A DNA stretch of 64,000 bases from Devosia faecipullorum (GTDB lineage: Bacteria > Pseudomonadota > Alphaproteobacteria > Rhizobiales > Devosiaceae): the NCBI RefSeq assembly GCF_015158295.1, contig NZ_JACDXV010000002.1, positions 257,501-321,500 of the forward strand, in the 5' to 3' direction. Each line of letters starts with the position of its first letter. Position 1 is the stretch's first letter. A program made the translations under genes and the position numbers. Shown here piece by piece: positions 2,167 through 19,565 of the stretch. The notes beneath the pieces were generated by a model, which saw only the letters and a list, made by a program, of their open reading frames with translations, did not search any database and was not told the DNA's origin.

Positions 2167-3720
2167 TCAGACCGCCTTGAAGTAGTTGAACTGCCAATTG
2201 TTGCCGTCGGGCAGGAAGGCGGGCTCCACCGAGCTGCGGTAGCCGAGGGCGAACACTTCATTGGTCAACCAGACCATGGAAGCCGTTTCATCCATAAGCT
2301 TTTGCAGTTCAATGATCTGCTGCACGCGGCTGTCGCGGTCGAGATTGCGGCCGCTTTCTTCCTGGATACGAGCAAATTCCGGGCTGTCCCAACGCTGCCA
2401 GTTCCAGTCGCCGATCTGGTTGGGCAGGAACCAGCGGGCATTGTAGGTCGGGTCTGGATTGGCATTGAAGCGCAGGATGAACAGTTCGAGCTGTTCCCCC
2501 GATTCCGCCTTGCCAGACGACCAGAAGGTGCCGGCCTCACGCTGATCGATTTCGACATTGATGCCCACCTCTGCCAGAAGAGCCTGGGCGACCAGGGCCA
2601 TGTTCTGGAAGGCCGGCTCGTTGAGAATGGTGAGCTTGAGCGTCATGGGCATCGTGACGCCGGACGAGGCCAGCAGCTGGCGCGCTTCCTCGACATTGCG
2701 CTCATAGACCGGGGCGTCGGCCCAGTGACCGAGCAGACCCGGCGGCAACATGGTATTGAGACGCTGGGCATTGCCCTGATAACCCGCCAAAACCATCTGC
2801 TCGACATCGAGGGCGGCACGGATCGCCTGGCGCACTGCCAGATTGTCGAGCGGCGCCTTCTGCATGTTCATGCCAAGCCAGACAAAGCGCTGGCCCGGGC
2901 GCTTGTCCACCACGACACCCTCGATGCCGGCCAGTTCATCGGCGGAATCGACGGACAGTTCGGTGAACTGGATTTCGTCAGCCCGCAGCGCCAGTTCGGC
3001 AGTTTTCTGGTTGGCGATATAGACCAGGTTGCAGGTTTCGAAATCCGGCGTATAGGCGGTGAATTCGGGGTTGCGCTTCAGGGTTACACCACGGTGCTCC
3101 TCAAACGCGGACACCATATAGGGGCCCGAACCGATCGGCCTGCGGCTATGTTCAGTTCCCAGTTCGGTTACGGCCTTGCGCGACTGGATAACGCCCGATG
3201 TGCCGGCCAGCACCACTTCCCAGAGGCTGGGCGAGGGCGTGGACAGGATCAGGCTGCCCGAATAGGTGTCATGCACCTGCACTTCTACCAGTGCTGCCCA
3301 GTCCTGCTTGTAGCTCGACACCCTTCCGTCCGCGTCGGGCGTATTGTACCGCTCGAACGAGAACTTGACGTCATCAGCGGTCATTTCACCGAAACCTTCG
3401 GTGAACATCTGACCCTTTTTGAGCGTGAAGTCGATCTGGAGCGGGGAAACTTGTTCGATGGTCTCGGCCGCGTCCAGCTCATATTCATAGGAGTTCGGCA
3501 CATAGGTGACGAGGCGCTGGAACACCGAGCGGATGATATTGCTGTCGGTGGTGCCCGTCATGAACGGGGGGTCGAGGTTCTGGACTTCGCGGCTGATGCG
3601 AACGGAAAGGCTCCGCTGCTCCTGCGCCCAGACCGGGCCGCCGGGCAGCATCGCGGCGCCGGCAACGCCTGCAAGACCGGCAAGAATGGATCGGCGGGTA
3701 AAGGTTGTGCTCGTTAACAT
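2167..3720 (-). CDS. Dpp-type ABC transporter substrate-binding protein
   Basis: A 517-residue periplasmic solute-binding protein of the SBP_bac_5 (DppA/OppA) family. The N-terminus has a twin-arginine-like signal: TRRSILAGLAGVAG followed by a hydrophobic stretch and a cleavage site near PVWAQE. Family features include LDPPFMTGT near the mature start, the TADDVKFSFER block and the RPIGSGPYMV block. The ATG at 3720 is preceded by GGAAG; an upstream extension to 3786 lacks a site. It is the last gene of a five-gene transporter unit (permeases 7524-5699, ATPases 5706-3752), and a terminator follows directly. The family carries peptides, opines and amino-acid derivatives; the shared upstream element at 7637-7662 links it to the ergothioneine-type genes, so a betaine or histidine derivative is a reasonable guess. 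Confidence 0.9.
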   Translation of the reverse strand: MLTSTTFTRRSILAGLAGVAGAAMLPGGPVWAQEQRSLSVRISREVQNLDPPFMTGTTDSNIIRSVFQRLVTYVPNSYEYELDAAETIEQVSPLQIDFTLKKGQMFTEGFGEMTADDVKFSFERYNTPDADGRVSSYKQDWAALVEVQVHDTYSGSLILSTPSPSLWEVVLAGTSGVIQSRKAVTELGTEHSRRPIGSGPYMVSAFEEHRGVTLKRNPEFTAYTPDFETCNLVYIANQKTAELALRADEIQFTELSVDSADELAGIEGVVVDKRPGQRFVWLGMNMQKAPLDNLAVRQAIRAALDVEQMVLAGYQGNAQRLNTMLPPGLLGHWADAPVYERNVEEARQLLASSGVTMPMTLKLTILNEPAFQNMALVAQALLAEVGINVEIDQREAGTFWSSGKAESGEQLELFILRFNANPDPTYNARWFLPNQIGDWNWQRWDSPEFARIQEESGRNLDRDSRVQQIIELQKLMDETASMVWLTNEVFALGYRSSVEPAFLPDGNNWQFNYFKAV

Positions 3721-3751
3721 ATCTAGGCTTCCATGATGTGGTGTCAGTGGT

Positions 3752-4734
3752 CTAGTCGGCAGAGCCCCCGGCCTGCTGATGCGCACTCGTAAGCGCGAGG
3801 GAATAGGGGAAATGGCATCGCACGAGCGAGCCGCTATCCGTTTTGGTCAATTCCGGCATGGTCTGGGCGCAGGCGGGCTGAGCCACGGGACAACGCGTAT
3901 GAAAGCGACACCCCTTGGGCGGATTGGCATTGCTCGGTATCTCGCCCTGCAGGATGATTGGATTGGCGGCACCACCCGCCGACAGCAGCGGATTGGTCGA
4001 TAGCAGGGTGGTGGAATAGGGATGGGCCGGCCGCTGGAATAGCGCTGCAGTCGGCGCGTCTTCAACGATCTGGCCGAGATACATGACGATCGTGCGGCGT
4101 GTGACGCGCTTGATCACATGCAGATTGTGGCTGACCATGATGAAGGTTAGGTTCATCTCGCGCTGGAGTTCCAGCAACAGATTGAGCAGTTCGCCCTGGA
4201 CGGACACGTCCAAACCCGCTGTCGGTTCGTCCGCCACCAGCACCGAAGGGCGCAGGAGCAGAGCACGGATCACTCCGACCCGGCGTGCCTGGCCGCCCGA
4301 AATTTCATGCGGATAGCGATCAAGGATAGATTTGGGCAGGCGCAGGCGTTCCAGCAAGGCCAGGATTCGCGCCTCGGTTTCCTGCCGGTCCAGGCTGTGA
4401 ATGGCCACCGCTTCCCGCATCAGACTGCCGATGGTCATGCGGGGCGAAAGCGTTGCCACCGCGTCCTGCATCAGCATCTGTATTTGCCGCCGAAATGCCT
4501 TGGCATCGGTCTTGAGCGCAGCGGTTACCGACTGTCCCTCGACGGAAACGGCGCCATCGGTGGGGCGGGTCAGGCCGACCAGAAGGCGGCAGAGCGTGCT
4601 CTTGCCCGAGCCCGATTCGCCGACGACGCCGACAGTCTCTCCCGTCCCGATCTCCAAAGAAACGCCGTCGAGCGCCCGAACCACATCGAGATAGACCACG
4701 CTTGCCTTGTCCAGGCTGACGGAGGGGCGGGAGG

Positions 4735-4738
<4 letters not shown>
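3752..4738 (-). CDS. Dpp/Opp-type ABC transporter ATP-binding protein (DppF-like)
   Basis: A 328-residue ATPase that powers the importer encoded by its neighbours. Walker A is at residues 40-47 (GESGSGKS), the signature is ISGGQARR, and Walker B is VLVADEPTAGLD. The C-terminal oligopeptide/dipeptide extension (PTAALFQRPAHPYSTTLL, then a CRFHTRCP cysteine motif) places it in the OppF/DppF subgroup. The start at 4738 overlaps the stop of the upstream ATPase gene by four bases (ATGA), so the two are translationally coupled; the longer open frame to 5194 is only a shadow of that gene. Acts at the cytoplasmic face of the inner membrane with the 4735-5706 ATPase as the second nucleotide-binding subunit. 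Confidence 0.92.
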
Positions 4739-5698
<960 letters not shown>

Positions 5699-5706
<8 letters not shown>

Positions 5707-6571
5707 GCTTTCCTCCTCGCTGCGATCTGGGATCGATGGCGTGGCGCAGCGCTTCACCCAGCATGGTGAAGGCCAGGGTCGCAATCGCCAGCGCCCCGCT
5801 AGCAATCAGCACCGGCATCACGGATTTGGACATGTTCTGATAGCCGTCCTGCAACAATCCGCCCCAACTGGCCAAGGGTGGACGCAGGCCCAGCCCGAGG
5901 AAAGAAAGGCTTGCCTCGATGGCAATCACGATCGGAATATCGAGCGAGGCGATCACGACCAGCGGCGCCAGGATATTGGGCACGATATGGAAGAACAGGA
6001 TGCGCAATTGGGAGGCGCCGAAAACCATTTCGGCCTCGATATAGGGTTCGTTCTTGACCGAGAGCACCTGCGCCCGCGCCACGCGGCCATAGTGAGGGAC
6101 CAGACTGGTGGCGATGACCACGACCAGCATGGGCAGGGACGAACCGAGCACTGCAACCGCGGCCATGGCCAATATGACGCTGGGAAAGGATGACACGGAA
6201 TCGAAGGCGATCAGAATGATGCGTTCGACCGGCCCGGGGACATAGGCCGAAAGAATGCCCAGTGCCATGCCGGCCGCCAACGCAATCCCGATCACCGACA
6301 GGGCAACGACGATGGCCACCTGCGTGCCAAAAATCTGTCGGCTCAGCAGGTCGCGTCCCAATTGGTCCGTGCCCAGCCAATGTTCAGGCGACATGCCGGC
6401 GAGGCGGTTGACGACGTCGAGCTTGTTGGGGTCGTAAGGAGCCAGAACGGGTGCAAAGATCGCCACCAACAGGATCAGCGACACCAGCACCAGACCGATG
6501 GCGCCGCTTGGATAGCGCGCCGTTTGGCGCAGCGTTTTAAGAAGGATGGAAATAGCTCTCATCTTGCTCAC
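5699..6571 (-). CDS. Dpp-type ABC transporter permease (DppC-like)
   Basis: A 290-residue inner-membrane permease. An N-terminal membrane segment (IGLVLVSLILLVAIFAPVLAP) precedes the DppC-type motif DPNKLDVVNRL and the HWLGTDQLGRD block; the EAA loop that contacts the ATPase is EASLSFLGLGLRPPLASWG. The GTG at 6571 overlaps the stop of the preceding permease gene (GTGA); an ATG nine bases further in, behind GGTGAG, is an equally good start. It pairs with the 6568-7524 permease to form the membrane channel. Confidence 0.9.
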
Positions 6572-7524
6572 CGCCTGTTGTGCTGAATACGAGGGTCGAA
6601 CAGAGAATAGCTAAGCTCCGTCAGTAGGTTGACCACGACGAAGATCACCACGACGACGAAAACCGCACCTTGCAGAACCGAGAAATTGCGTGCCTGCAGG
6701 GCATCGTAAAGCACGCTGCCCAGGCCCTGTCGGGCAAAGATGATCTCGATCAGCACCGCGCCGCCCAGCATGCGCCCAAAGCCCATGCCGATGATCGCCA
6801 GAGTGGGGATGACGGCGTTCTTGAGGGCATATTTGTAGTGGACCAGGTTTTCCCGCAGGCCGTAGGCCCGGGCAGTGCGTATGTAATTCTGTCCCAGCGC
6901 TTCGAGCATCGAGGTGCGCACCAGCCGGGCGATCAGACCGATCCAGCCCAAGGCCAGCGCTACCGTCGGCAAGATCATCCGCACAAGCTGGTCGGCCAGG
7001 CTGGCATTGTCGGAAACGCCCAGCACCGGCAACCAATTGAGCCAGACTGAAAAGACGACAAGCAGGAAAATACCGAGGATGAAGCTGGGGACGGAGACGA
7101 AAACCACCGAGATCATGGCCATCAGCGTGTCGCCGACCGATCCGCGATGCACCGCCCCGTAGACGCCGGCCGGAATGCCGATGAGGCAGGCCAGCCCCAT
7201 GGCCGCGAAGGCCAGCGCGAATGTATGCGGCAAGGCAGCCCAGACGATCGCATTGACGCTCCGGCCCGAAATGACATCGGTGCCCAGATTGCCCATCGCT
7301 ACCTGGGTGAAGAAGCGCCAGAGACGAACAGGAATAGGCTGATCGAGTCCCATTTCGACAATGAAGCGCTGGGCATATTCCGGAGTCGCCAGGGGGCCGA
7401 GCAAAGCCGTCGCGGGATCGCCCGGCACCATGTCCAGCAAGACGACGATGACCAGCATCGCCCCGAAGACCGACATGGCGGCAGTCAGAATGCGATTGAA
7501 GACGTAGTTTTCAAGTAACCGCAT
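6568..7524 (-). CDS. Dpp-type ABC transporter permease (DppB-like)
   Basis: A 318-residue inner-membrane permease, first gene of the transporter unit. It shows the DppB pattern: an N-terminal helix (ILTAAMSVFGAMLVIVVLLD), VPGDPATALLG, a PHTFALAFAAMGLACLIGI segment, and an EAA loop near RTARAYGLRENLVHYKYALKNA. The order B-C-D-F-A with overlaps of 4-8 bases between most genes indicates one transcript reading leftwards. The 274-base space upstream (7525-7798) carries no gene, but it contains the element at 7637-7662 that is shared with the lyase and hydratase operons. Confidence 0.92.
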   Translation of the reverse strand: MRLLENYVFNRILTAAMSVFGAMLVIVVLLDMVPGDPATALLGPLATPEYAQRFIVEMGLDQPIPVRLWRFFTQVAMGNLGTDVISGRSVNAIVWAALPHTFALAFAAMGLACLIGIPAGVYGAVHRGSVGDTLMAMISVVFVSVPSFILGIFLLVVFSVWLNWLPVLGVSDNASLADQLVRMILPTVALALGWIGLIARLVRTSMLEALGQNYIRTARAYGLRENLVHYKYALKNAVIPTLAIIGMGFGRMLGGAVLIEIIFARQGLGSVLYDALQARNFSVLQGAVFVVVVIFVVVNLLTELSYSLFDPRIQHNRR

Positions 7525-7636
7525 TAGTCAGCCCCTTCCGTTCGCAGCATCCGACACGCAACACAGAGCCCTTCGTTTTCCACCGGCCCGGAAGGCAGTA
7601 GCATAATGGGATGATAGCGCGGCACTCGCTGTGGGT

Positions 7637-7662
7637 GATATCCCAAATCCGGAACACTGTAT
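7637..7662 (-). promoter_or_regulatory. Candidate regulon element, copy A
   Basis: On the plus strand the site starts GATATCC; positions 9 (A), 14 (C), 18-19 (AC) and 25-26 (AT) also match the copies at 10657 and 18306. It lies about 113 bases upstream of the transporter's first start codon. The identical spacing at three operons suggests a common regulator, most simply the LysR-type protein encoded at 10707-11900. Seen by eye; statistical support was not computed. Confidence 0.5.
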
Positions 7663-7798
7663 CTCAAAAATCCTGGCCTGATCAAAAAACAAGCAATGTA
7701 TTCAGGGCCTTGCGCTATTGCCGAGCCGCCTGGCCGAACCGAGCGTCCCGATAGAATGGCAATTGCCGGCCGAAGCCATTGCGTAGGGGTGTGGCCGC

Positions 7799-9016
7799 TC
7801 AGCGTTGCGCGGGCGGGTGGCGCCTGGCGAGCGCGATACCGACGATGGAGCAGAGCGTGCCCCCGGCAATGAAAGTTGATGGCATGCCCAGAAAGTCGCC
7901 CGCAAGGCCGACAATGAGCGAGCCGAGCGGCACGATCCCGAGCAGCGTCATGGCATACATGGCCATGATCCGGCCACGCAGGGCCGGCGGCGTGAAATGC
8001 TGCAAAAGTGTATTGGATGAAAGGTTCTGCGACAGAATGGCGAGGCCCAGCGGCAGCGCCAGAAGCGCAGTTACCCAGTAGATGTCCGAAAATCCCATGC
8101 CGATCAGCACCAGCCCCAAGACCAGCGTCGACCAGGCTGGAAAGACTTCGAGCTGGTCGACCCGGTCCCGCATGGCGAGCACCAGGCCGGCAAGCAAGGC
8201 GCCAAGACCCGTAAGGCTCATCAATAGCCCCGCCGCATCCGCTTGCTGGCCCAGCATCTCGCGCACCAGCACCGGCAGGAAGTAGAAATAGGGCACCGAG
8301 CAGAAACTGCAGGTGGCGACCAGCACCAATAATCGTCCCATTTCGGGGTGCAGGCGCAGGAAGGCAAAGCCCTCTGCAATATCGGCAAGAAAGCTCGTGT
8401 TCGCCCGGTGCTGGCGCGGCGGCAGGCGCATGCGAAACAACACGACAAGCATAGGAAGGTAGGCCAGCGCCTTGAGCAAGAAGCACCAGCTCTCGCCCGC
8501 CAGCGCCACCACACTGCCGCCGATGGCGGGGCCAATGAGCCGAGCCAGATTGAACAGCATGGAATTGAGCGCGATGGCATTGCCAAGATCGTCCAGGCCG
8601 ACCAGTTCGGCCACGAAGACCTGCCTTGCCGGATTATCGAAAGCCGCAAGAACGCCAAGGCCCAGTGTAATTATCACCAGCAGGTCAATGCTGATCGTGT
8701 CGGTGAATGTGAAAACGATCAGGGCGCCGACCAGCAACACATAGCCGAGCTGCAGAGCCAACAGCAGTCGCCGCAGGTTCACCCGGTCAATGATGGCCCC
8801 GGTAAAAGGAGTCAGTAGCAGCGTCGGACCCAGCTCGCATGCAGCCAGCACGCCCAGCATCCAGGGCGAGCCGCTCAACCGCCACATCAACCAGCCCAGC
8901 GCGATGGAATGTATCCAGGTCCCGATCAGCAGCGGCACCTGCGCAAGAAAAAACCGCCGATATTCGGGATGGCTCAGAGCGCGGCTCCCTGATGCCCAAC
9001 GATTGTTTCGGCTCAC
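7799..9016 (-). CDS. MFS transporter (EntS-like, MFS_3 type)
   Basis: A roughly 405-residue major-facilitator protein with alternating hydrophobic helices throughout, an SHPEYRRFFLAQ opening typical of the EntS-like subgroup, a loop-2/3 motif GAIIDRVNLRRLL, and FDNPARQVFVAELV. Subgroup members are usually drug or siderophore exporters, so export of a pathway by-product is as possible as substrate uptake. The start is uncertain: GTG at 9016 has AGGT six bases upstream and avoids overlap, while TTG at 9091 would overlap the lyase gene by 47 bases. It is the second gene after the lyase (stop at 9045) on the same strand, so the two are probably co-transcribed. The substrate is not evident from the sequence. 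Confidence 0.85.
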   Translation of the reverse strand: MSRNNRWASGSRALSHPEYRRFFLAQVPLLIGTWIHSIALGWLMWRLSGSPWMLGVLAACELGPTLLLTPFTGAIIDRVNLRRLLLALQLGYVLLVGALIVFTFTDTISIDLLVIITLGLGVLAAFDNPARQVFVAELVGLDDLGNAIALNSMLFNLARLIGPAIGGSVVALAGESWCFLLKALAYLPMLVVLFRMRLPPRQHRANTSFLADIAEGFAFLRLHPEMGRLLVLVATCSFCSVPYFYFLPVLVREMLGQQADAAGLLMSLTGLGALLAGLVLAMRDRVDQLEVFPAWSTLVLGLVLIGMGFSDIYWVTALLALPLGLAILSQNLSSNTLLQHFTPPALRGRIMAMYAMTLLGIVPLGSLIVGLAGDFLGMPSTFIAGGTLCSIVGIALARRHPPAQR

Positions 9017-9044
9017 CCTCAGACCTGTTATCCCAAGTCCCGCC

Positions 9045-10601: not shown

Positions 10602-10656
10602 GGCCCAAATTATCCCCAGTGGCGACCCAGCACTAGCGGATCGGCCCGGTACGGAT

Positions 10657-10682
10657 GATATCCTAAAAACGGTACGGCAGAT
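10657..10682 (-). promoter_or_regulatory. Candidate regulon element, copy B
   Basis: Same spaced consensus as the sites at 7637 and 18306: GATATCC, then A, C, AC and AT at positions 9, 14, 18-19 and 25-26 on the plus strand. It lies 56 bases upstream of the lyase start and downstream of the regulator stop, implying that the lyase has its own promoter rather than depending on readthrough from the regulator gene. Confidence 0.5.
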
Positions 10683-10706
10683 GCGTCGTGGCCGGGCCGA
10701 GGACGG

Positions 10707-11900
10707 CTAGGCCATTTCGGTATGGGGAGGTGGCATGGGAACGCCTTGCATCAGGCTGACGATACCCTCCACCAATGGCGGGGGAAGCGCGCTGGCGCGC
10801 CAGACCAGCGTCAATTGCTGCCGATAGCTGTCCGGCAGCGGCCATTTGCTCAACCGGTATGGCAGGCGTTCCACCGCGCTTTGCGGCATCACGCTGAGAT
10901 AATTGTAGCGCGCGACCATATTGACGATCACCGGCACGGAGTCGATTTCCACGATGCGCTTGGGGCCATGGGCCAGAGACGCGGCGACCTCGCGCATATA
11001 GCGGTCCGCCGCCTGGCGAATGCCGCTGCGCACGCTGGGTAGAACCAGGGTACAGGCGCCGAGCACCCCGTCAATGTCCGCCGTGCCGTCCAAGTCCGGC
11101 GCCCCGACCAGCCAAAGCGCGTCGGTTCTGATCGGCCGACACTCAAAATCGGGTGGCACAGATTGATGGTCGATCAGGACCAGATCGAAATGGCCGGTCT
11201 TGAGCCCTGACAACAGCTCGTCCGCGGTGGCGCCGGAAATCGCCAGATGCTGGCGCGGCCGGAGTTTCTCCCAGCCGGCGGCAATCGCGGCCAGCATATG
11301 GGCGATGGAACTCTCGTGTCCCAACGGCATCACCGACCCCATTCGCCAGGTCTCGATATTCTGTCGGAAGCGGGCGGCCGCAGCCTGAGAAACGGCCTCC
11401 CAGTCCTCAATGATCTGCTCGGCGATCGGCAGAGCGGCATGGCCATAGGTCGAGCATGACACCCCAGCGCCGCTGCGTTTGAGCAGAGGGAAGCCCAGGT
11501 GGCGCTCCATATCGGAAATCTGTCGCGTCAATTGTGGCTGGCCGACACCGAGCGTTCTTGCTGCCTTGCGGATACTGCTTGCCCGGGCCACTTCCGTGAA
11601 GCGGATCAGACCCAGAATGCTGATCGGCGCAATCGGCTTGTCATCGGGCGCGCCCGCCAGGCTCATCAATTGCCGCGACGCCGCTGCAATACGGTTGATG
11701 GCATCGAGCCGCCGTTCCGCCTCCAGCGTCAGTGTCATGCTGGCCCCCTCGCGACGAACCAGGGGCACTGCGACAGCCGCTTCGAAACGCGACAGCGCCG
11801 CGCTCATCGTTGCGGGAGGCCGCCCCTCGATACGCGCAGCCTCTCGGACGCCGCGCACCGCAAAGATCGTCCTAACGGCGCTGATGGTGGCAATATTCAA
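10707..11900 (-). CDS. LysR-type regulator with two tandem HTH domains
   Basis: A regulator of about 397 residues, longer than the usual 290-310 for LysR proteins. Residues 3-65 form one LysR-like winged HTH (ISAVRTIFAVRGVREAAR, later LSRFEAAVAVPLVRR) and residues 94-155 a second, better-conserved one (FTEVARASSIRKAARTLGVG, then ISDMERHLGFPLLKRSG). The effector-binding region follows from about 190. The TTG at 11900 is preferred because AAGGAAG lies six bases upstream and it places the first HTH at the N-terminus as is usual; a GTG at 11966 would add 22 unrelated residues. It is transcribed towards the lyase gene and divergently from the VOC gene. It most likely senses a pathway compound and acts at the three related elements. 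The first HTH is degenerate and may not bind DNA. Confidence 0.85.
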   Translation of the reverse strand: MNIATISAVRTIFAVRGVREAARIEGRPPATMSAALSRFEAAVAVPLVRREGASMTLTLEAERRLDAINRIAAASRQLMSLAGAPDDKPIAPISILGLIRFTEVARASSIRKAARTLGVGQPQLTRQISDMERHLGFPLLKRSGAGVSCSTYGHAALPIAEQIIEDWEAVSQAAAARFRQNIETWRMGSVMPLGHESSIAHMLAAIAAGWEKLRPRQHLAISGATADELLSGLKTGHFDLVLIDHQSVPPDFECRPIRTDALWLVGAPDLDGTADIDGVLGACTLVLPSVRSGIRQAADRYMREVAASLAHGPKRIVEIDSVPVIVNMVARYNYLSVMPQSAVERLPYRLSKWPLPDSYRQQLTLVWRASALPPPLVEGIVSLMQGVPMPPPHTEMA

Positions 11901-12180
11901 AGCGATGCTTCCTTCGGAACGGGCAATTGTCCCGAACCTTTCAGTCAGGCCGAGGCATTTGTCCACAACCCCGTTCCACAGAATGCATCACCCGGAGCGA
12001 CGGCGCCGACGCCAGATTGCTGTCAACAGCCTGGCCGGCCTAGCCCTGTGCCGGAGCAATCCAGCTCGACGCCGATATATAGTGTCCATGTTTTGACATC
12101 TTTCGGGTCGGTGGCCGCTGCACTCTCATCGGCTTCACGCTGCCCAGGATGGGCTATCCAGCACTGCCACAGGACCAAGC

Positions 12181-12573
12181 ATGTACGAGATCAACCACAT
12201 TCATCTGCGTTCCTCAACGCCCCGCGAAACGGCGGATTGGTATGTAAAAGCCTTCAATTTCGAGGTGGTGCGGGATTGGGTGCGCCCGATTGGCGACCGC
12301 TTCGTGCGGTGTCGCAGCGCCGGTGGCCTCATGGTCAATATATCAGGTCCCCGGACCGGTGAAGTGCTGGCCCCCGCTACAACCGAAACCTATCTCGGCC
12401 TTGAGCATTTCGGCGTTACCGTCGACAAGCTCGAGCCGGAGATCGAACGGCTTCGAGAGCTTGGAGCGCAGCTGGTAGGTGAACCGGCGGTGGTCGATAC
12501 CGGCGTGCGCGTCTGTTTTCTCATCGTGCCGGGCGACGTGCGAATCGAGTTGATGGAAGTGTTCGACGTCTGA
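12181..12573 (+). CDS. VOC/glyoxalase family protein
   Basis: A 130-residue vicinal-oxygen-chelate protein with paired beta-alpha-beta-beta-beta modules. The metal-ligand pattern of the superfamily is visible: His7 in INHIHLRS, His or Glu in LGLEHFGV, and the C-terminal glutamate in VRIELMEV. Members include dioxygenases, lactoylglutathione lyases and thiol-transfer enzymes. AGGA lies about six bases before the ATG. It is divergent from the tandem-HTH regulator and convergent with the hydratase operon, inside the proposed ergothioneine locus, so a role on a sulfur-containing or keto intermediate is possible but unproven. Confidence 0.8.
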   Translation: MYEINHIHLRSSTPRETADWYVKAFNFEVVRDWVRPIGDRFVRCRSAGGLMVNISGPRTGEVLAPATTETYLGLEHFGVTVDKLEPEIERLRELGAQLVGEPAVVDTGVRVCFLIVPGDVRIELMEVFDV

Positions 12574-12584
12574 GCGAGTGCATT

Positions 12585-12606
12585 GGGCCCGGAGCTTTCC
12601 GGGCCC
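12585..12606. terminator. Hairpin terminator between convergent genes
   Basis: A perfect 9-base-pair stem (GGGCCCGGA, loop GCTT, TCCGGGCCC) lies 11 bases past the stop of the VOC gene, in the space facing the end of the hydratase operon. No run of T follows on either strand, so it is a structural candidate rather than a classic intrinsic terminator. Confidence 0.5.
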
Positions 12607-12727
12607 CCATGGAGCGCTGCCCTTCCCAGATCGTTTCGGTGTCTAGAAGAAACGCTGCAATGATCTAAACGTTTGTCCTATCGCGTTTTCGATCCGGAAG
12701 TCAGGTATCCACTGTTCCTGAAACGCT

Positions 12728-14392
12728 TTAGAGGTCCACCCGAATGTGGCCGATGCCCTTCCGCTCGATTTCATCAAGGCTCTCGGCGTAGCCCGCATCG
12801 GCATAGCGCATAACGCCCAGGGCCGTGTCATTGGTCAACGCATGGTCGAGCCGCTCGTCACCCTCAGGCGTGCCGTCAGCGATCACGGTCACCCCTGCCG
12901 AAGTCATGTATCCCGCATAGCCGCCGCCGCCGGAATGGACCACGACCAGGTCGGCCATGGATGAGCAGAGCAGCATGGCGTCAAGCAATGGCCAATCGGC
13001 AATGGCGTCCGAGCCATCCTTCATGCGCTCGGTCATGATGTTCGGATGCGCCATCGCCCCGGCATCGAGGTGATCACGGCTGAACGCCACCGGCCCTTTG
13101 AGCGTGCCATCGGCGACCATGGAATTGACCATACGGGCCAGCGCGGTGCGTTCACCATGGCCGAGCCAGGCGATGCGGGCGGGCAGGCCTTCGAATGGCA
13201 CATGCTGGCGCGCAAGGCCAATCCAGTTGGTGACGATCGCATTGTCGGGGAACATTTCGAGCAATTTGTCGTCGATCCTGGCAATGTCAGACGGATCGCC
13301 CGACAGCGCCATCCAGCGGAACGGGCCAATAGCCCGCGCAAAGAGCGGCCGCAGATAGGCTTCGGTGAAGATCGGGATATCGAAGGCATTTTCGACGCCA
13401 CCCGCCTGGGCGTGTGTGCGGATCAGGTTGCCATTGTCGAACACTTCGGCACCCGCAGCCTGGAAGGACAGCATGGCACGCACATGATCCACGATCGATG
13501 CGCGGCTGGCGGCCATCAACTGGCTCGGACCTTCGATGCGCAGGCGCCTGACCTCGTCAAGCGACATGCCCTTGGGCACATAGCCATAGACGAGGTCATG
13601 AGCGGATGTCTGGTCCGTCACGATATCGGGCACAATGCCGCGACGGGCGATCTCGGGGTAGATTTCAGCGGCGTTCCCAACCAGGCCGATCGATGTGGCG
13701 CGTTTGTCGCGGACGGCCCGGTCGATCATTGCCAGAGCGGTGTCGAGATCGGGTGCTATCTCTTCAAGATAGCCGATTTTCTTGCGCATCCGCGCCCTGT
13801 CGGGATCGATGTCCACGCAGAGGATGGCCGCGCCGGCCATGCGCCCGGCCAGCGGCTGCGCGCCGCCCATGCCGCCAAGCCCCGCCGTCAGGATGAACCG
13901 TCCCGCCAGATCGCCGCCGAAGCGGTTGTCGGCGATGCGCATGAAAATCTCGTATGTGCCCTGAATCACCCCCTGGCTGCCGATATATTGCCAGGCGCCT
14001 GCCGTCAGGCCGCCCCAGCAGATCAGGCCTTTGCGCTCCAGTTCGTAGAAGGTCTCGGCCTTGGCCCATTGCCCGACGATGTTGCAATTGGCCATGATCA
14101 CCAGCGGAGCCTTGGCGTGGGTCTTGAGCAGACCGATCGGCTTGCCGGACTGGATGACCAGCGTCTGGTCTTCGTCCATGCTCGACAGCGCTTCGACGAT
14201 GGCCTTGTGACTCGCCCAATTGCGTGCGGCCTTGCCCAAGGCAGCGTAAACAACCAGCTCGTCGGGGTTTTCCCCAACGCTCAGCACGTTTTCCAACAGG
14301 CGCAGCAGCGCTTCCTGGCGCCAGCCCCGGGCCCGCAATTCGGGACCGCCTGGAACGGGGAAACCGGGATGGCGCGGGTTTGGTGTCGGCAT
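12728..14392 (-). CDS. Urocanase-family hydratase with Cys to Ala change; probable thiourocanate hydratase
   Basis: A 554-residue member of the urocanate hydratase family, which adds water to the imidazole-acrylate system using tightly bound NAD+ as electrophile. The NAD site is intact: LTAGLGGMGGAQPLA (168-182) and VGNAAE. The block with the active-site cysteine of urocanase, GLPARICW, is GLPARIAW here, with Ala408 in place of Cys (Cys410 in the Pseudomonas putida enzyme). The later HHGGGVGMGFSQH block is replaced by HSGGGGYAGYMTSAG. Such changes argue for a different substrate; in ergothioneine breakdown the homologous step hydrates thiourocanate. The ATG at 14392 has GAGG seven bases upstream. 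It is the last gene of the operon beginning at 18156, 34 bases after the DUF917 gene. Family certain; substrate inferred from context. Confidence 0.8.
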   Translation of the reverse strand: MPTPNPRHPGFPVPGGPELRARGWRQEALLRLLENVLSVGENPDELVVYAALGKAARNWASHKAIVEALSSMDEDQTLVIQSGKPIGLLKTHAKAPLVIMANCNIVGQWAKAETFYELERKGLICWGGLTAGAWQYIGSQGVIQGTYEIFMRIADNRFGGDLAGRFILTAGLGGMGGAQPLAGRMAGAAILCVDIDPDRARMRKKIGYLEEIAPDLDTALAMIDRAVRDKRATSIGLVGNAAEIYPEIARRGIVPDIVTDQTSAHDLVYGYVPKGMSLDEVRRLRIEGPSQLMAASRASIVDHVRAMLSFQAAGAEVFDNGNLIRTHAQAGGVENAFDIPIFTEAYLRPLFARAIGPFRWMALSGDPSDIARIDDKLLEMFPDNAIVTNWIGLARQHVPFEGLPARIAWLGHGERTALARMVNSMVADGTLKGPVAFSRDHLDAGAMAHPNIMTERMKDGSDAIADWPLLDAMLLCSSMADLVVVHSGGGGYAGYMTSAGVTVIADGTPEGDERLDHALTNDTALGVMRYADAGYAESLDEIERKGIGHIRVDL

Positions 14393-14426
14393 GGAAAAAC
14401 CTCGTTCGTTCGGCGCGAAACCGGGA

Positions 14427-15515
14427 CTAGCCCAGGGCATAGGTTTTAAGGTCGATCCCCATTCGGTCTTCGACGAAGGGATAGACGGTCGGGTCAAGCA
14501 CGCTTGCACTGAGCGGAATAATGGATTTGGGCACGTGCAGAACAAAAATGTCCATGCCCTCGCGCAATTCTCCGACGGAAAGCGGCTGGCCTTCGGCGTC
14601 GAGCGTGGTGATTACATCGGGGAAAGTCGCGACCCGACGACCATCGGCATCGTCCACTGCCATATATTCGTTCATCACATGCAGGGTCGCCGCCCTGGTG
14701 CCCATACCGAGGGTGACGGTGCCGATATCGAAGGCTTCCTGGGTATAGATCACGTCCTTGGCCTGTACCCGGCCCTGTGTCAGGATTGTGCCGCCGGTCG
14801 CCTTGACGATGGCATCGATCACCGCCGTGCCGCCACGCTTTTCTGCTGCCAAAATGGCCTCCCCCAGGTCCAGGGCCAACGAAATGCCCCCCAGAGCTGC
14901 GTGCCGGCGCACATAGCTGGCGCGCAGCGGATTGCGACAGGAGGCGATGAAACCACCCGACTGGTCGGCAGCAGCGCGCAGCACCGGCGACACCCTGGCG
15001 GTCGCCCCCTTGACCACCAGTTCAATATAGCGATTTTCGTCGCGATTGCCGCCCACGGCGGTCTGGATCATCGGCAAGGGCGAGCCCGCCATGCCGATGG
15101 ACCCCATATCCCCGGTGGGATGAGCACGCACGTCGCCGACCGCATCGAGCACCTTGATGCCCAATATGGCCGACGGCAACCAGCCGTTGAGCGTTGAGGA
15201 TTTGCCGTTCTGTCCGATCATCAGGGCGCTGAGCTTTTCGCCCAGCGCGTCCTGCAACAGCGAAACCGCCTTGACGTAGTCGATGCCCTGCATTTCCCAG
15301 GGCGTGGTTGAAGCCGGCGCGCCGATGGCTGCGGCCGTAGCCACCCAGTCATCGCCATCCAGTTCATCCACGCTCACCAGTTCAGGCTTGCCAACGCTGA
15401 CTGCGGCATAGCCGAGCGTCCTGCCGTGATCCGCCCAACCACCGCCGCCAGCCGCATATACCGATCCACCCTTGACCGCGGCTTCGACGTCTTTTTCAGT
15501 CAAAATACGGCCCAT
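14427..15515 (-). CDS. DUF917 family protein; candidate thioxo-imidazolidine desulfhydrase
   Basis: A 362-residue DUF917 protein. The N-terminal block LTEKDVEAAVKGGSVYAAGGGG and the motif AVGDVRAHPTGDMGSIGMAG are characteristic of the family, which shares its fold with hydantoinase-associated proteins. The start at 15515 overlaps the stop of the amidohydrolase gene (TGATG). Between a urocanase-like hydratase and two ring or carbamoyl hydrolases, the missing pathway step is conversion of the 2-thioxo to the 2-oxo imidazolidine ring with release of sulfide. I recall that the Burkholderia desulfhydrase for this step is a DUF917 protein, but this must be checked. From sequence alone only the family is certain. 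Confidence 0.7.
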   Translation of the reverse strand: MGRILTEKDVEAAVKGGSVYAAGGGGWADHGRTLGYAAVSVGKPELVSVDELDGDDWVATAAAIGAPASTTPWEMQGIDYVKAVSLLQDALGEKLSALMIGQNGKSSTLNGWLPSAILGIKVLDAVGDVRAHPTGDMGSIGMAGSPLPMIQTAVGGNRDENRYIELVVKGATARVSPVLRAAADQSGGFIASCRNPLRASYVRRHAALGGISLALDLGEAILAAEKRGGTAVIDAIVKATGGTILTQGRVQAKDVIYTQEAFDIGTVTLGMGTRAATLHVMNEYMAVDDADGRRVATFPDVITTLDAEGQPLSVGELREGMDIFVLHVPKSIIPLSASVLDPTVYPFVEDRMGIDLKTYALG

Positions 15516-16804
15516 CAACCGATCTCCTGCAGTTTTCTGTCTAATGCCACAACGGCATCCAGCAGGACCGACGCGCCCAGCGCGATGTCCTGGTTGGTGG
15601 CAAATTCGTCCGGGGTATGGCTGCGGCCATCCAGGCAGGGCACGAAAATCATCGCAGCCTTGGTGATGCGTGCCATCCAGGCCGTATCGTGCCCCGCGCC
15701 CGAGGCCATGCGACGATGCCGCGCTCCCGCGGTGTCGCAAGCAGCATCAAGCACATCGAGCAAATCGGGATCGCCGGGTGTCGGGTGGTTGTCGGAAAGG
15801 ATGTGCGGGGGGCCGGCAGGCACCCCGGTTGCAGCAGAAATTTCTGCCACCGCGCGCTCCAGCCCGTCGATGAAGTGGTCCATGTCCGCGCGGCGCTCGG
15901 CGCGGGCATCGATGAGCAGACGCACATGCGCCGGCACCACATTGGCTGCGTTCGGCGTCATTTCGAATTCACCGACAGTTGCAGCAAAGTGATGCGCGCC
16001 CCCGGCCAAGGCCCGGCCCAGCGCCTCGACGCTGATCGCGATCCGGGCCGCCGTCGTCAATGCATCCTTGCGCGATTGCATCGGCGTCGTGCCGGCATGG
16101 TCCTCCCGGCCCTGCACCACGATCTCGATGCGCGTAATCCCGGCAATCGCCGTCACCACGCCGATATCGAGCGCCTGATCCTGCAAGACCGGCCCCTGTT
16201 CGATATGCAGCTCGAGGAAAGCGCTGATATCGTCGCGCCGAGCCGATTCGTGAGGATTGCCTCCGACCGTGGAAATCGCCTCTTCCAGCGTCAGCTCGCC
16301 ATTGTGGCGCGCGAGCCATTCCGCCGGCCGCGTTGCGCTCATTCCCCGGCTGCCGATGCAGGAGACGCCAAAGATCGAAACTTCCTCCGCGAGAAAGTCG
16401 ACGATCTCGAGAGCATGATCCAGCTCGATCCCTTGATCGCGTAGGGCCCGGGCAAGTTCCAGACCCGCCACGATGCCGGCAATACCGTCAAAGCGGCCGC
16501 CATCGGGCACGGTGTCGGAATGCGAACCGACCATGATCGAGCCGAGATCCGGGCGCTTTCCGGCAATTTTGCCGATCAGATTGCCGGCCGCATCGATCCG
16601 CGTTTCGGCGCCCGCATCGCGCATGGCCTGTTCCAGCCATTTGCGACCTTCGAGAAATATCGGCGTAAAGGCCCGCCGCGTCCATGGCCGGCCCGCCTCG
16701 GTCAAGGCTGCCAAGGCGTCGATATCGGCGCCGATGCGCTCGGCGCGGATCGCGGAATTGGTCCGTGCGGGATCAAGCCCGGGCGACGGTTTCCGGTCGA
16801 TCAT
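15515..16804 (-). CDS. M20-family N-carbamoyl-L-amino acid amidohydrolase
   Basis: A 429-residue Zn-dependent amidase of the HyuC/AllC group in peptidase family M20. All expected metal ligands are visible: His95 in VGSHSDTV, Asp106 in RFDGIAG, Glu140/141 in FLAEEVS, His200 in LELHIEQGP and the C-terminal His in SGAGHDTAW. The group removes the carbamoyl moiety of N-carbamoyl amino acids, giving the amino acid, CO2 and ammonia. The start overlaps the hydantoinase stop by four bases. In the proposed pathway it would release L-glutamate from N-carbamoyl-L-glutamate. Allantoate or ureidoglycine hydrolysis is an alternative for the family, but no purine genes are near. Confidence 0.85.
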   Translation of the reverse strand: MIDRKPSPGLDPARTNSAIRAERIGADIDALAALTEAGRPWTRRAFTPIFLEGRKWLEQAMRDAGAETRIDAAGNLIGKIAGKRPDLGSIMVGSHSDTVPDGGRFDGIAGIVAGLELARALRDQGIELDHALEIVDFLAEEVSIFGVSCIGSRGMSATRPAEWLARHNGELTLEEAISTVGGNPHESARRDDISAFLELHIEQGPVLQDQALDIGVVTAIAGITRIEIVVQGREDHAGTTPMQSRKDALTTAARIAISVEALGRALAGGAHHFAATVGEFEMTPNAANVVPAHVRLLIDARAERRADMDHFIDGLERAVAEISAATGVPAGPPHILSDNHPTPGDPDLLDVLDAACDTAGARHRRMASGAGHDTAWMARITKAAMIFVPCLDGRSHTPDEFATNQDIALGASVLLDAVVALDRKLQEIG

Positions 16805-18156
16805 GCCAGCTCGCCCGGCCGCACGAACCGCCCGGTACCGGGCCCCGCTACATGGGTGCCGTCAAACACCTGCTGCCCACGCAAATAGGTCAACCCGACC
16901 GTCCAGGGCAGCTCGATACCATTATAGGGAGACCAGCCGACCACGTTGTGCCCGCTTGCGGCCGCGTCATAGCGCTGGGGGCGCGCAAACAGCACGGCAA
17001 TGTCGGCATCCTTGCCAATAGAAAGCGCACCCTTGCGCCCGAGGCGGAAATGGCGCGCCGGATTTTCCGCCATCAACCTGGCTGCCCAGCTCAGTGGAAT
17101 GTCGCGCGCCAACGCACCCTTGACGAATAATGGCAACATGACTTCCAGCCCCGGCACGCCGGAGGCATTGGCCAGCATGTCCGGATCGGTCTTGCGGTTC
17201 TCAGACCAGCTCACATGGTCTGTCGAAACCATGGTGACATTGCCCCGTCGCACATGGTCCCAGAGCTTTTCGACTTCGGCACGGGAGCGGACAGGGGGGT
17301 TGATCTTGGCTTTGCCGCCAAGCCGCGCCACGTCATGCTCTTCGTCGAGGGTCAGATAGTGAATGCAACACTCTATGGTGGCGTTGAATCCCTGATCGCG
17401 ATAGCTCCGCGCGATGTCATAGCCGCGACTCAGCGAACAATGCACCACGTGGGCAGGACATCCCGTTGCGGCACCGGTTTCGTAGATTTGCAGCGAGGCC
17501 AGCAATTCGGTGAGTGGCGGCCGGCTCAGTGCGTGGGCCCGGTAATCGGAAATACCCGAGGCGCGAACCTTGGCCATGGCTGCACGGACCGCCTCGTCAT
17601 CCTCATTGTGCACGCCGGCCGTGAGCCCGGTCTGCGCAATTGCGGCAAAACACTCTTCGAGCAAAGCGGGCGGGATGCGCGGGAAGCGCACGGGGTCAGT
17701 ACCAAAGGTGGAAAATTTGAACGCGGCGACGCCTGCCTCGACCTGTTCGGCAATCCGGGTCGCCCCCTCTTCGGGTACAATGGTGCCGTAAAGCGCAAAA
17801 TCCACGCGCGCTTGCGGTTCGGCATGCGCCACCTTGCGGCGAACGGCCTCGGCGGAGGCCACCAGATTGCCCTCGTCATAGGGCATGTCGACGATGGTGG
17901 TAACACCACCGGCCGCCGCGGAACGGGTCGACCAGACAAAGTCTTCCTGGTCCTTCTGGCTCAGGGAATGGACCTGTGCATCGATCGCGCCGGGCAGGAC
18001 AAGCGCTCGCCCCAGATCGTGGCGTTCGCGGGCCGCGGGCGCGGCACCTTCGCCGACATGCACGACCTTGCCGTCACGCACCGCCACATGGCCATTCTCA
18101 ATGACACGATCGGGCAGAACGATCGTACCGCCCAGACTGAGATCGAAATCGGACAT
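16801..18156 (-). CDS. Hydantoinase/dihydropyrimidinase-like amidohydrolase; candidate hydantoin-5-propionate hydrolase
   Basis: A 451-residue amidohydrolase of the cyclic-amide group (allantoinase, dihydroorotase, hydantoinase). The usual ligands are visible for the carbamylated lysine (Lys147 in AAFKFSTFG), His183 (GVHNEDDE), His239 (VVHCSLSRG) and Asp313 (VSTDHVSW). The first metal motif is odd: the family has D-x-H-x-H, but here it is DAQVH, with Gln61 replacing the first histidine. This could alter metal occupancy. First gene of a four-gene operon (hydantoinase, carbamoylase, DUF917, hydratase) joined by overlaps or short gaps, behind the regulon element at 18306. Its proposed reaction opens the hydantoin-5-propionate ring to N-carbamoyl-L-glutamate. 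Enzyme class is clear; substrate is inferred. Confidence 0.8.
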   Translation of the reverse strand: MSDFDLSLGGTIVLPDRVIENGHVAVRDGKVVHVGEGAAPAARERHDLGRALVLPGAIDAQVHSLSQKDQEDFVWSTRSAAAGGVTTIVDMPYDEGNLVASAEAVRRKVAHAEPQARVDFALYGTIVPEEGATRIAEQVEAGVAAFKFSTFGTDPVRFPRIPPALLEECFAAIAQTGLTAGVHNEDDEAVRAAMAKVRASGISDYRAHALSRPPLTELLASLQIYETGAATGCPAHVVHCSLSRGYDIARSYRDQGFNATIECCIHYLTLDEEHDVARLGGKAKINPPVRSRAEVEKLWDHVRRGNVTMVSTDHVSWSENRKTDPDMLANASGVPGLEVMLPLFVKGALARDIPLSWAARLMAENPARHFRLGRKGALSIGKDADIAVLFARPQRYDAAASGHNVVGWSPYNGIELPWTVGLTYLRGQQVFDGTHVAGPGTGRFVRPGELA

Positions 18157-18305
18157 CTACAAAACCTTCGACGCAATTGCGATCAGGCCGGCATTGCCGG
18201 GCGAACCAGGACGAGCGGCTGCGTGCCTTCCAGCGCGCTGGGCGAATGCCCAACCACCCTTCAAATCTTGCTGAATCAACTGTATGGGATGCCCCCCGAT
18301 CCCGG

Positions 18306-18331
18306 GATATCCCATTTCCAAGACAAGATAT
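18306..18331 (-). promoter_or_regulatory. Candidate regulon element, copy C
   Basis: Third copy of the spaced consensus shared with 7637 and 10657 (GATATCC at 18306-18312 on the plus strand, then matching A, C, AC and AT). It lies 150 bases upstream of the hydantoinase start, in the 259-base space between that gene and the MDR dehydrogenase gene. Confidence 0.5.
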
Positions 18332-18415
18332 TCGCACCTTGACCTGCGATTGCGCACGACAATCGCGACGCTGGTGCGCCGCGATTATCGCCTTGCTGCA
18401 GATGAATTGCGTTCG

Positions 18416-19396: not shown

Positions 19397-19535
19397 TGCA
19401 AGACTCCCTTGTCAGTTCGAAGAAGGCCCAGACACGGGCCATTGGAAACACCTGCGTTCAGGGGGTGCCCGCGTCAATCGGGCGAGCCCACTCTTGTTTG
19501 CGCAATATTGTACGCCTTATGCCCAATGCTGGACG

Positions 19536-19558
19536 AAACCCGCGCCGGGCGCGGGTTT
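19536..19558 (-). terminator. Rho-independent terminator after the AceE-like gene
   Basis: An 11-base-pair inverted repeat (AAACCCGCGCC with GGCGCGGGTTT, almost no loop in the full pairing, so the tip opens) starts eight bases beyond the stop of the 19566-21950 gene and ends in TTT on the minus strand. Confidence 0.75.
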
Positions 19559-19565
19559 CTGGCGG

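What the first reader, a model, noticed from the sequence alone, without database searches (positions are those of the whole stretch)
2167..18156. Probable complete ergothioneine catabolic regulon disguised as a hut-like cluster
Seen: a MIO-less HAL-family lyase, a urocanase-family hydratase with changed active-site residues, a DUF917 protein, a hydantoinase-like amidohydrolase and an M20 carbamoylase, with a Dpp-type transporter, an MFS carrier and a LysR-type regulator. Known: ergothioneine can be degraded by ergothionase (trimethylamine plus thiourocanate), thiourocanate hydratase, a desulfhydrase giving hydantoin-5-propionate, then hydrolysis to N-carbamoyl-glutamate and glutamate (from memory, described in Burkholderia sp. 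HME13). Inference: the five enzymes match these five steps one to one, and HutI and HutG-type genes are absent. If right, a soil alphaproteobacterium uses ergothioneine as carbon, nitrogen and sulfur source, with its own transporter and regulator.
Basis: partly seen in the sequence, partly recalled or inferred. Interest (0 to 1): 0.85.

Follow-up and report, generated by a model that had tools for sequence, protein, structure and literature searches.

The report
Ergothioneine-degrading gene cluster with its regulator
A soil bacterium, probably a Devosia, carries a complete set of genes predicted to break down the fungal antioxidant ergothioneine; the pathway is already known, but the cluster points to a little-noticed regulator with two DNA-binding heads, its DNA switch site, and a candidate importer of an unexpected type.

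Summary
Four of the five enzymes pass curated NCBIfam equivalog cut-offs for ergothioneine catabolism. The fifth is an MIO-less HAL-fold lyase that groups with lyases of other ert clusters, away from HutH, and shares two lysines, Ser, Leu and His with T. denticola ergothionase. The pathway is not new: its reconstitution is published (title seen, abstract recalled) and NCBI has models for it. One correction: a complete hut operon lies about 7 kb before the window, so ert is additional to hut.

What goes beyond known annotation is the control layer. The LysR regulator has two complete LysR-type winged-helix modules. GGGATAT sites (fullest form TTTGGGATATCCCA) precede the lyase gene in 71 of 75 assessable relatives; the four without a site also lack the regulator. 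A plasmid search with the regulator alone gave seven loci, all ert clusters, each with its best site at an ert promoter. In the window, sites precede ertD and dppB, and weakly the lyase; scores alone would not prove them. This ties the Dpp-type transporter, a class other than EgtU, to the regulon. Substrate, inducer and DNA binding remain untested.

The parts
2167..3720 (-). Dpp-type (SBP_bac_5) substrate-binding protein
   Evidence: PF00496, 193.9 bits; below every NCBIfam equivalog cut-off listed; orthologues at E 1e-100 in 3 of 136 genomes of the family (own included), all three in ert clusters
3752..4738 (-). DppF-like ABC ATPase
4735..5706 (-). DppD-like ABC ATPase
5699..6571 (-). DppC-like permease
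6568..7524 (-). DppB-like permease
7630..7649 (-). predicted operator GATTTGGGATATCACCCACA, 106 bp before dppB
   Evidence: best matrix hit of the 64-kb window, 18.8 bits, reached by 5 of 200 shuffles; a site precedes dppB in D. epidermidihirudinis and G471 too; one of two WTGGGATATCMC sites in the genome
7799..9091 (-). MFS_3/EntS-like transporter, probably an exporter; its longest ORF overlaps the lyase end
   Evidence: 75% identical gene in L040
9045..10601 (-). ErtA (my naming), predicted ergothionase (MIO-less HAL-fold lyase)
10650..10669 (-). weak predicted operator TTTTTAGGATATCATCCGTA, 49 bp before the lyase
   Evidence: 10.1 bits, third distinct site in the window; spacing like that of many relatives
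10707..11900 (-). LysR-type regulator with two complete HTH_1 modules (proposed ErtR), TTG start
12181..12573 (+). VOC/glyoxalase-family ORF of unknown role
   Evidence: PF00903, 36.2 bits
12728..14392 (-). ErtB (my naming), thiourocanate hydratase
   Evidence: NF058530, 1049 bits, cut-off 930; closest PDB 7ned, 814 bits against 625 for the next; tree
14427..15515 (-). thiohydantoin desulfurase (DUF917/S-Me-THD family; ErtC in my naming)
   Evidence: NF058529, 597 bits, cut-off 440
15515..16804 (-). ErtE, N-carbamyl-L-glutamate amidohydrolase
   Evidence: NF058540, 586 bits, cut-off 520; NF009531 'Zn-dependent hydrolase' scores 622.5
16801..18156 (-). ErtD, hydantoin-5-propionate amidohydrolase
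   Evidence: NF058538, 766 bits, cut-off 600
18299..18318 (-). predicted operator GAAATGGGATATCCCGGGAT, 143 bp before ertD; perfect palindrome GGGATATCCC at 18304-18313
   Evidence: 14.8 bits, reached by 48 of 200 shuffles; one of two GGGATATCCC places in 3.4 Mb; conserved in L040 and, as GGGATTTCCC, in G471
18416..19396 (-). zinc-type quinone oxidoreductase upstream of ertD, membership in the cluster unsure
   Evidence: found beside ertD in L040 (81%) and in no other of the 80 loci

Best explanation
The cluster is a complete ergothioneine (ert) catabolic regulon. Predicted steps: a Dpp-type ABC transporter imports ergothioneine; ErtA removes trimethylamine to give thiourocanate; ErtB hydrates it to a thiohydantoin-type propionate; the DUF917-family enzyme removes sulfur as sulfide to give hydantoin-5-propionate; ErtD opens the ring to N-carbamyl-glutamate; ErtE gives glutamate, ammonia and CO2. 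A LysR-type regulator with two LysR DNA-binding modules senses ergothioneine or an intermediate and acts at TTTGGGATATCCCA-like operators before ertD, dppB and (weakly) ertA. Shown here: gene content, equivalog matches, active-site replacements, predicted tandem HTH architecture, operator conservation, co-occurrence of operator and regulator. Inferred: enzyme activities, ligand, inducer, activation or repression, transporter substrate, fate of trimethylamine.
For: Four equivalogs over cut-off. Hydratase scores in the class are bimodal: 5 of 385 genomes pass 930 bits (963-1049), next best 722 (at most three candidates scored per genome). Lyase tree: 25 ert lyases one side of a branch, SH-aLRT 100; K68, S199, L277, H342 and K381 shared with T. 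denticola ergothionase, where at least 24 of 25 HutH rows have one other residue. Hydratase tree: 15 ert against 26 HutU, SH-aLRT 100. 76 of 80 desulfurase-anchored loci carry the lyase family. No egtD found in the genome, so the compound would have to be imported (none of its 14 control genomes passed the cut-off either). GGGATAT in 71 of 75 lyase upstream regions against 135 of 4000 random pieces. Regulator present in 12 of 12 tested genomes with a site and 0 of 4 without. Regulator-only plasmid search: 7 of 7 hits in ert clusters, 7 of 7 top matrix sites at ert promoters, three orders. Dpp operon with operator-like sites in 3 of 3 genomes that have the orthologous SBP.
Against: No activity was measured. 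The lyase hit no ergothionase model and scores 158 bits to 6s7j against 151 to a HAL. In D. epidermidihirudinis the lyase lies elsewhere, beside an Opu-type transporter and with no site. By score or count alone the window sites are not exceptional: 5 of 200 shuffles reach 18.8 bits, 48 of 200 reach 14.8, and 33 of 200 have five or more hits above 9.5 as the window has; with one mismatch GGGATATCCC has 4 window matches, reached by 13 of 100 shuffles; in the genome it has two places, and so has the reversed control. The ertA site is weak. The matrix was made from sites chosen for an exact GGGATAT core. Of 8 Rhizobium regulators away from ert, only 2 have a strong site in the regulator/SBP gap and 2 a moderate one. 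Few relatives pair ert with a Dpp-type transporter, so such an importer is unusual. The absence of an Opu-type SBP rests on one query, and the tool warned that such an empty answer shows nothing. The SBP structure prediction failed (pLDDT 35.5).
Confidence: 0.85

Rival explanations
1. A diverged hut operon for histidine or urocanate.
For: The lyase and hydratase are HutH- and HutU-family proteins and hit those models (TIGR01225 223 bits, below its cut-off; TIGR01228 686 bits, above its cut-off of 375).
Against: MIO triad absent, Y280L, N195S (recalled HAL numbering) in 25 of 25; urocanase Cys to Ala in 92 of 93, the other locus giving no match; separate clades; a canonical hut operon exists in the same genome.
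Confidence: 0.02
2. S-methyl-ergothioneine (or related S-methyl thiohistidine) catabolism.
For: Same enzyme families; the hydratase and desulfurase hit the S-methyl models NF058531 (741) and NF058532 (294.5).
Against: Both lie below those models' cut-offs (880 and 450) while the thiourocanate models are passed.
Confidence: 0.04
3. Ergothioneine sulfonate is the physiological substrate, with sulfite rather than sulfide released.
For: A reconstituted ergothioneine sulfonate pathway is in print (Yan et al. 2022, title in the reference list of PMC13405746, cited there for Agrobacterium radiobacter); T. denticola ergothionase accepts the sulfonate (recalled abstract).
Against: Thiourocanate hydratase and thiohydantoin desulfurase cut-offs are passed. 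The sulfonate enzymes were not at hand, so this was not tested.
Confidence: 0.08
4. The Dpp transporter and the operator-like sites before it are bystanders: a peptide transporter next to ert, with another unseen ergothioneine importer. (Not exclusive of the ert pathway itself.)
For: The SBP_bac_5 family usually carries peptides (general knowledge); Opu-type genes lie by the ert genes or the regulator in many relatives; window site scores alone are reached by shuffles.
Against: The site before dppB is the best of the window, and sites precede dppB in three genomes; all three genomes with the SBP have it in an ert cluster.
Confidence: 0.3

Closest known systems
Five-step bacterial ergothioneine catabolism (Beliaeva, Leisinger, Seebeck 2021, ACS Chem Biol; title seen in a reference list; abstract recalled; paper not held)
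   Same: All five enzyme steps; NCBIfam models for the hydratase, the desulfurase, ErtD and ErtE are passed
   Different: Nothing known in the chemistry; the regulator, operator and Dpp-type transporter are not part of what I recall of it
Treponema denticola ergothionase, PDB 6s7j
   Same: MIO-less HAL fold; shared Lys, Lys, Ser, Leu and His positions that differ in HutH
   Different: Distant by sequence (158 bits); MIO site reads Glu-Gly-Asp instead of Cys-Ala-Asp; joins the ert clade only weakly (support 76, long branches)
EgtU ergothioneine ABC transporter (PMC9732360, passages read)
   Same: Proposed same cargo
   Different: EgtU is an osmoprotectant-type cluster F SBP (PF04069), its close homologues nearly only in Firmicutes; here the SBP is SBP_bac_5 (PF00496)
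LysR-type transcriptional regulators (e.g. CbnR, OxyR, BenM)
   Same: HTH_1 plus LysR substrate domain; best PDB matches
   Different: A second HTH module precedes the usual one; none of the 13 PDB sequence matches at E 1e-10 covers the first 89 profile positions
hut operon (HutF/I/H/G/U) of the same genome
   Same: Lyase and hydratase folds
   Different: Separate genes, about 7 kb before the window; HutF, I, H and G over their cut-offs, HutU partly masked but among HutU in the tree

Membership tests
ert pathway: thiourocanate hydratase (NF058530) | score over the curated equivalog cut-off | tested here: met
   1049.3 against 930
ert pathway: thiohydantoin desulfurase (NF058529) | score over the cut-off | tested here: met
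   596.9 against 440
ert pathway: ErtD (NF058538) | score over the cut-off | tested here: met
   765.9 against 600
ert pathway: ErtE (NF058540) | score over the cut-off | tested here: met
   586.1 against 520; NF009531 scores 622.5 against 486
ergothionase | no MIO triad, and residues shared with T. denticola ergothionase but not HutH | tested here: met
   25 of 25 aligned ert lyases; I did not have the paper's list of catalytic residues
ergothionase | releases trimethylamine from ergothioneine | not testable with these tools
   needs an enzyme assay
HutH | Ala-Ser-Gly MIO triad and score over TIGR01225 cut-off | tested here: not met
   triad absent; 222.7 against 539.15
HutU | active-site Cys in GLPARICW | tested here: not met
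   Ala in the window, although TIGR01228 is passed (686 against 375)
S-methyl thiourocanate pathway | scores over NF058531 and NF058532 cut-offs | tested here: not met
   741 against 880; 294.5 against 450
ergothioneine sulfonate pathway | similarity to the A. radiobacter enzymes | not tested
   no sequences at hand
LysR-type regulator | HTH_1 plus LysR substrate-binding domain | tested here: met
   PF00126 and PF03466
LysR-type regulator | a single N-terminal DNA-binding module | tested here: not met
   10 of 10 N-terminal pieces tested (of 21 regulators) also pass the HTH_1 cut-off; two wHTH plus helix modules in the AF2 model
EgtU-type importer | PF04069 osmoprotectant-type SBP | tested here: not met
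   the SBP is PF00496

The most novel reading that the evidence does not exclude
A distinct subclass of LysR regulators that carries two complete LysR DNA-binding modules in one chain is the dedicated regulator of ergothioneine catabolism across Alphaproteobacteria, acting at a conserved GGGATATCCC operator; and in some Devosia its regulon has recruited a Dpp-type ABC transporter as an ergothioneine importer of a class unrelated to EgtU.
Probability: 0.55. Interest if true: 0.65.

Novelty: new variant of a known kind. Interest (0 to 1): 0.5.

Why it matters
Ergothioneine made by fungi and actinobacteria enters soil, plants and animals (general knowledge); bacteria that degrade it help set its supply and would release trimethylamine and sulfide. 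A 2026 paper reports that BLAST with the Burkholderia ergothionase returned only ammonia-lyase names and takes the enzyme to be limited to few genera, while granting that divergent or poorly annotated homologues may be missed (PMC13405746, passages read). Here 76 of 80 desulfurase-anchored loci, the best of 400 candidates in one genome collection and all from Rhizobiales/Hyphomicrobiales by their titles, carry this lyase family. A regulator-operator pair with exact coordinates makes the regulon directly testable and would find members that enzyme names hide. A LysR chain with two DNA-binding modules raises a testable question about how it reads its operator.

Tried and rejected
Considered and rejected: hut, and S-methyl ergothioneine, as functions (see rivals). 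Structure of the SBP: AlphaFold model unusable (pLDDT 35.5), so nothing on its ligand is claimed. Trimethylamine oxidation: one FMO-like hit of 75 bits in the genome, not followed. Second GGGATATCCC of the genome (G000:C10:30614): near the middle of a piece where a repressor-like ORF is read, taken as chance. Not tested: activation against repression, inducer. First urocanase-Cys pattern was too narrow for HutU (2 of 25 read) and was widened. G086 (22 HutH-family matches) was not used as ergothionase evidence: the lyase beside its ert genes falls on the HutH side.

Paper searches that returned nothing on this regulator or operator: LysR with ergothioneine, 9 papers listed, none about ert regulation by title; tandem or two HTH with LysR (12 listed, one of them read in passages, 20 of 27 listed); EgtU with ergothioneine, 4 listed, one read in passages; GGGATATCCC as text, 12 papers, unrelated by title; thiourocanate, 1 paper. 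These cover only open-licence PMC papers.
Full report
Observation. Pfam and NCBIfam give: SBP_bac_5 protein, two Dpp/Opp ATPases, two permeases, an MFS_3/EntS-like transporter, an aromatic-lyase-fold protein, a LysR regulator, a urocanase-family hydratase, an S-Me-THD (DUF917) protein, an M20 hydrolase and an amidohydrolase. A VOC/glyoxalase ORF on the + strand (12181-12573) also lies inside the cluster.

Enzymes. Four proteins pass curated equivalog cut-offs that NCBI set for this very pathway: thiourocanate hydratase NF058530 (1049 against 930), thiohydantoin desulfurase NF058529 (597 against 440), ErtE NF058540 (586 against 520) and ErtD NF058538 (766 against 600). The S-methyl versions are not passed (741 against 880; 294.5 against 450). 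In 385 genomes of the class, 5 pass the hydratase cut-off (963-1049 bits) and the next score is 722, so the family separates cleanly (at most three candidates scored per genome). The closest solved structure of the hydratase is 7ned (814 bits; next 625); I believe from memory that this is the Paenibacillus thiourocanate hydratase, but the entry is titled urocanate hydratase. The urocanase Cys is Ala in 92 of 93 ert loci scanned (the other, L107, gives no match; its piece ends just after the desulfurase gene) and Cys in 25 of 25 HutU loci. In a tree, 15 ert hydratases and 26 HutU proteins fall on two sides of one branch, SH-aLRT 100.

Lyase. No NCBIfam ergothionase model was hit, and its PDB scores do not decide (ergothionase 6s7j 158 bits, a HAL 151). 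Three other lines do. First, 76 of 80 desulfurase-anchored loci from named genomes carry this lyase family (the loci are the best 80 of 400 candidates, all Rhizobiales/Hyphomicrobiales by their titles); in three of the four others (L052, L091, L116) the piece begins at a contig end, and in the fourth, D. epidermidihirudinis, a 61% identical lyase lies elsewhere in the genome. Second, in a tree of 58 lyases the 25 ert lyases form one side of a branch, SH-aLRT 100. These 25 are the window, three fetched ones (L122, L154, L155) and 21 of 22 that I picked from 77 lyase ORFs; L050 fell out by the length filter. The other rows are T. denticola, one G086 lyase, 30 rows of a HutH search and the own HutH, which is the same sequence as L124. 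T. denticola joins the ert side only weakly (76) and the tool warned of long branches. Third, the MIO triad is lost in 25 of 25, and V64, K68, S199, L277, H342, G377 and K381 of the window are shared with T. denticola ergothionase, where at least 24 of 25 HutH rows have one other residue (six outlying HutH-search rows were dropped before this count, and two of the 25 are the same own sequence). HAL residue numbers in this report are recalled.

Hut in the same genome. A hut set is present on the same contig: HutF, HutI, HutH and HutG pass their cut-offs, and HutU is read in part before a masked stretch and groups with HutU. No EgtD was found, so the bacterium should not make ergothioneine; none of that call's 14 control genomes passed the cut-off, so the search had no positive control. 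This corrects 'HutI and HutG absent', which is true of the cluster only.

Regulator. The LysR (397 aa from a TTG at 11900) has two HTH_1 matches. Twenty of 80 named loci have a homologue in the flanks, on the strand opposite to the lyase in all but L040. Ten of ten N-terminal 85-residue pieces tested, of 21 regulators, pass the HTH_1 gathering score (27.6-46.5 against 26.6). The AlphaFold model (pLDDT 85.7, pTM 0.54, so relative domain placement is unsure) shows helix-helix-helix-strand-strand-long helix twice, at 3-80 and 95-180. The two modules of the window align at 29% identity over 41 residues. None of 13 PDB sequence matches at E 1e-10 starts before profile position 90, and the Foldseek hits listed are LysR-family structures of ordinary length.

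Operator. The regions upstream of the regulator and lyase share TTTGGGATATCCCA or one half of it. GGGATAT occurs in 71 of 75 assessable lyase upstream regions (330 bp), 47 of them with the full GGGATATCCC, against 1 of 75 for ErtD, 0 of 79 ErtE, 0 of 80 desulfurase, 1 of 79 hydratase, and 135 of 4000 random pieces. The 75 are related, so the count is not 75 independent events. A matrix from 42 distinct sites, none from the window, but all chosen for the exact GGGATAT core, ranks these window sites highest: 7630 before dppB (18.8), 18299 before ertD (14.8), 10650 before the lyase (10.1), 9020 near the MFS start (9.7). In dinucleotide shuffles 5 of 200 reach 18.8, 48 of 200 reach 14.8, and 33 of 200 have five or more hits above 9.5, as the window has; GGGATATCCC with one mismatch allowed has 4 window matches, reached by 13 of 100 shuffles. 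Scores alone therefore do not prove the sites; positions and conservation do the work. WTGGGATATCMC, written after seeing the two strong sites, occurs twice in 3.4 Mb, at those two, with no control match. GGGATATCCC occurs at two places, one of them the ertD site; the reversed control pattern also has two.

Tests of the link. (a) I searched 16 of the 80 genomes for the regulator: 12 with a site (8 without a regulator in the flanks, 3 with one, and L040, whose sites precede ertD and dppB) and 4 with none (L051, L093, L107, L118, which are all four assessable lyase loci that lacked a site). All 12 have a regulator match at E 1e-40 or better, in the eight cases covering the first module too; 0 of 4 of the others do (Fisher p 0.0005, without correction for kinship). 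In seven of the eight, the regulator lies on a contig of the same length as that of the ert locus, more than 100 kb away; in G386 on another contig. (b) The Rhizobium regulators inspected in detail (L173, L174, L178) stand beside an Opu-type transporter; of eight loci two have a strong site in that gap (18.5), two a moderate one (11.1, 10.5), four none. (c) A search of 72,556 plasmids with the regulator alone, at E 1e-40, gave 7 places; all 7 have ErtD, ErtE, desulfurase and hydratase within 10 kb, and in all 7 the best matrix site of the 21-kb piece lies at an ert promoter (13.4-25.8), in two Paracoccus and in Thalassospira, Neorhizobium, Rhizobium, Ochrobactrum and Shinella. Paracoccus and Thalassospira belong to orders not used for the matrix; the other genera, or close kin, were among its sources. 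In the Shinella record the match begins at residue 30 of the query.

Transporter. The Dpp SBP has orthologues at E 1e-100 in 3 of 136 genomes of the family: the window's, G418 (83%) and G471 (52%). G418 matches L040, D. epidermidihirudinis, and is in the window's genus, so the window is probably a Devosia. All three have dppBCDFA in an ert cluster; G471 reads ertD-ertE-desulfurase-ertB-dppBCDFA-lyase-flavin oxidoreductase-regulator, with a different lyase that also lacks the usual MIO triad by eye. Operator-like sites precede ertD and dppB in all three (12.4-19.6 bits). An Opu-type SBP from D. limi found nothing in the window genome, an answer that the tool itself calls inconclusive without a control. 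This makes the Dpp system the best candidate importer; its ligand is not shown.

Known and new. The pathway is published and modelled, so the enzymes are new members of a known kind. I found no paper in the searched library on the regulator, the operator or a Dpp-type ergothioneine importer (mostly judged from listings); subscription papers were not searched. I therefore class the whole as a new variant of a known kind.

Noticed in passing
L003 5142-11496 (G000:C2 243.6-250.0 kb): hut operon (hutF, I, H, G, U; hutU read in part) on the same contig about 7 kb before the window start.
   Followed up: yes
window 12181-12573 (+): VOC/glyoxalase-family ORF inside the ert cluster, opposite strand; role unknown.
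   Followed up: partly
L120/L122 (Devosia epidermidihirudinis): The lyase gene lies away from ertD, ertE, desulfurase and ertB, beside an Opu-type ABC transporter and without an operator site: a split ert system.
   Followed up: partly
L187 662-4682 (G471): ert cluster with a second type of MIO-less lyase, an OYE-family flavin oxidoreductase and the tandem-HTH regulator in a row; the oxidoreductase could act on a downstream product.
   Followed up: no
G086 (L039, L156): A 2.7-Mb genome with 22 matches to the HutH family, and a desulfurase-hydratase pair beside a HutH-like lyase.
   Followed up: no
L189 (Thalassospira marina plasmid) 15459-20771: A Dpp-type ABC transporter about 4 kb from the regulator of an ert cluster; parts 28-39% identical to the window's.
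   Followed up: no
L191 and L188 (Neorhizobium, Paracoccus plasmids): Amino-acid-type ABC transporters near the regulator, a further transporter class beside ert.
   Followed up: no
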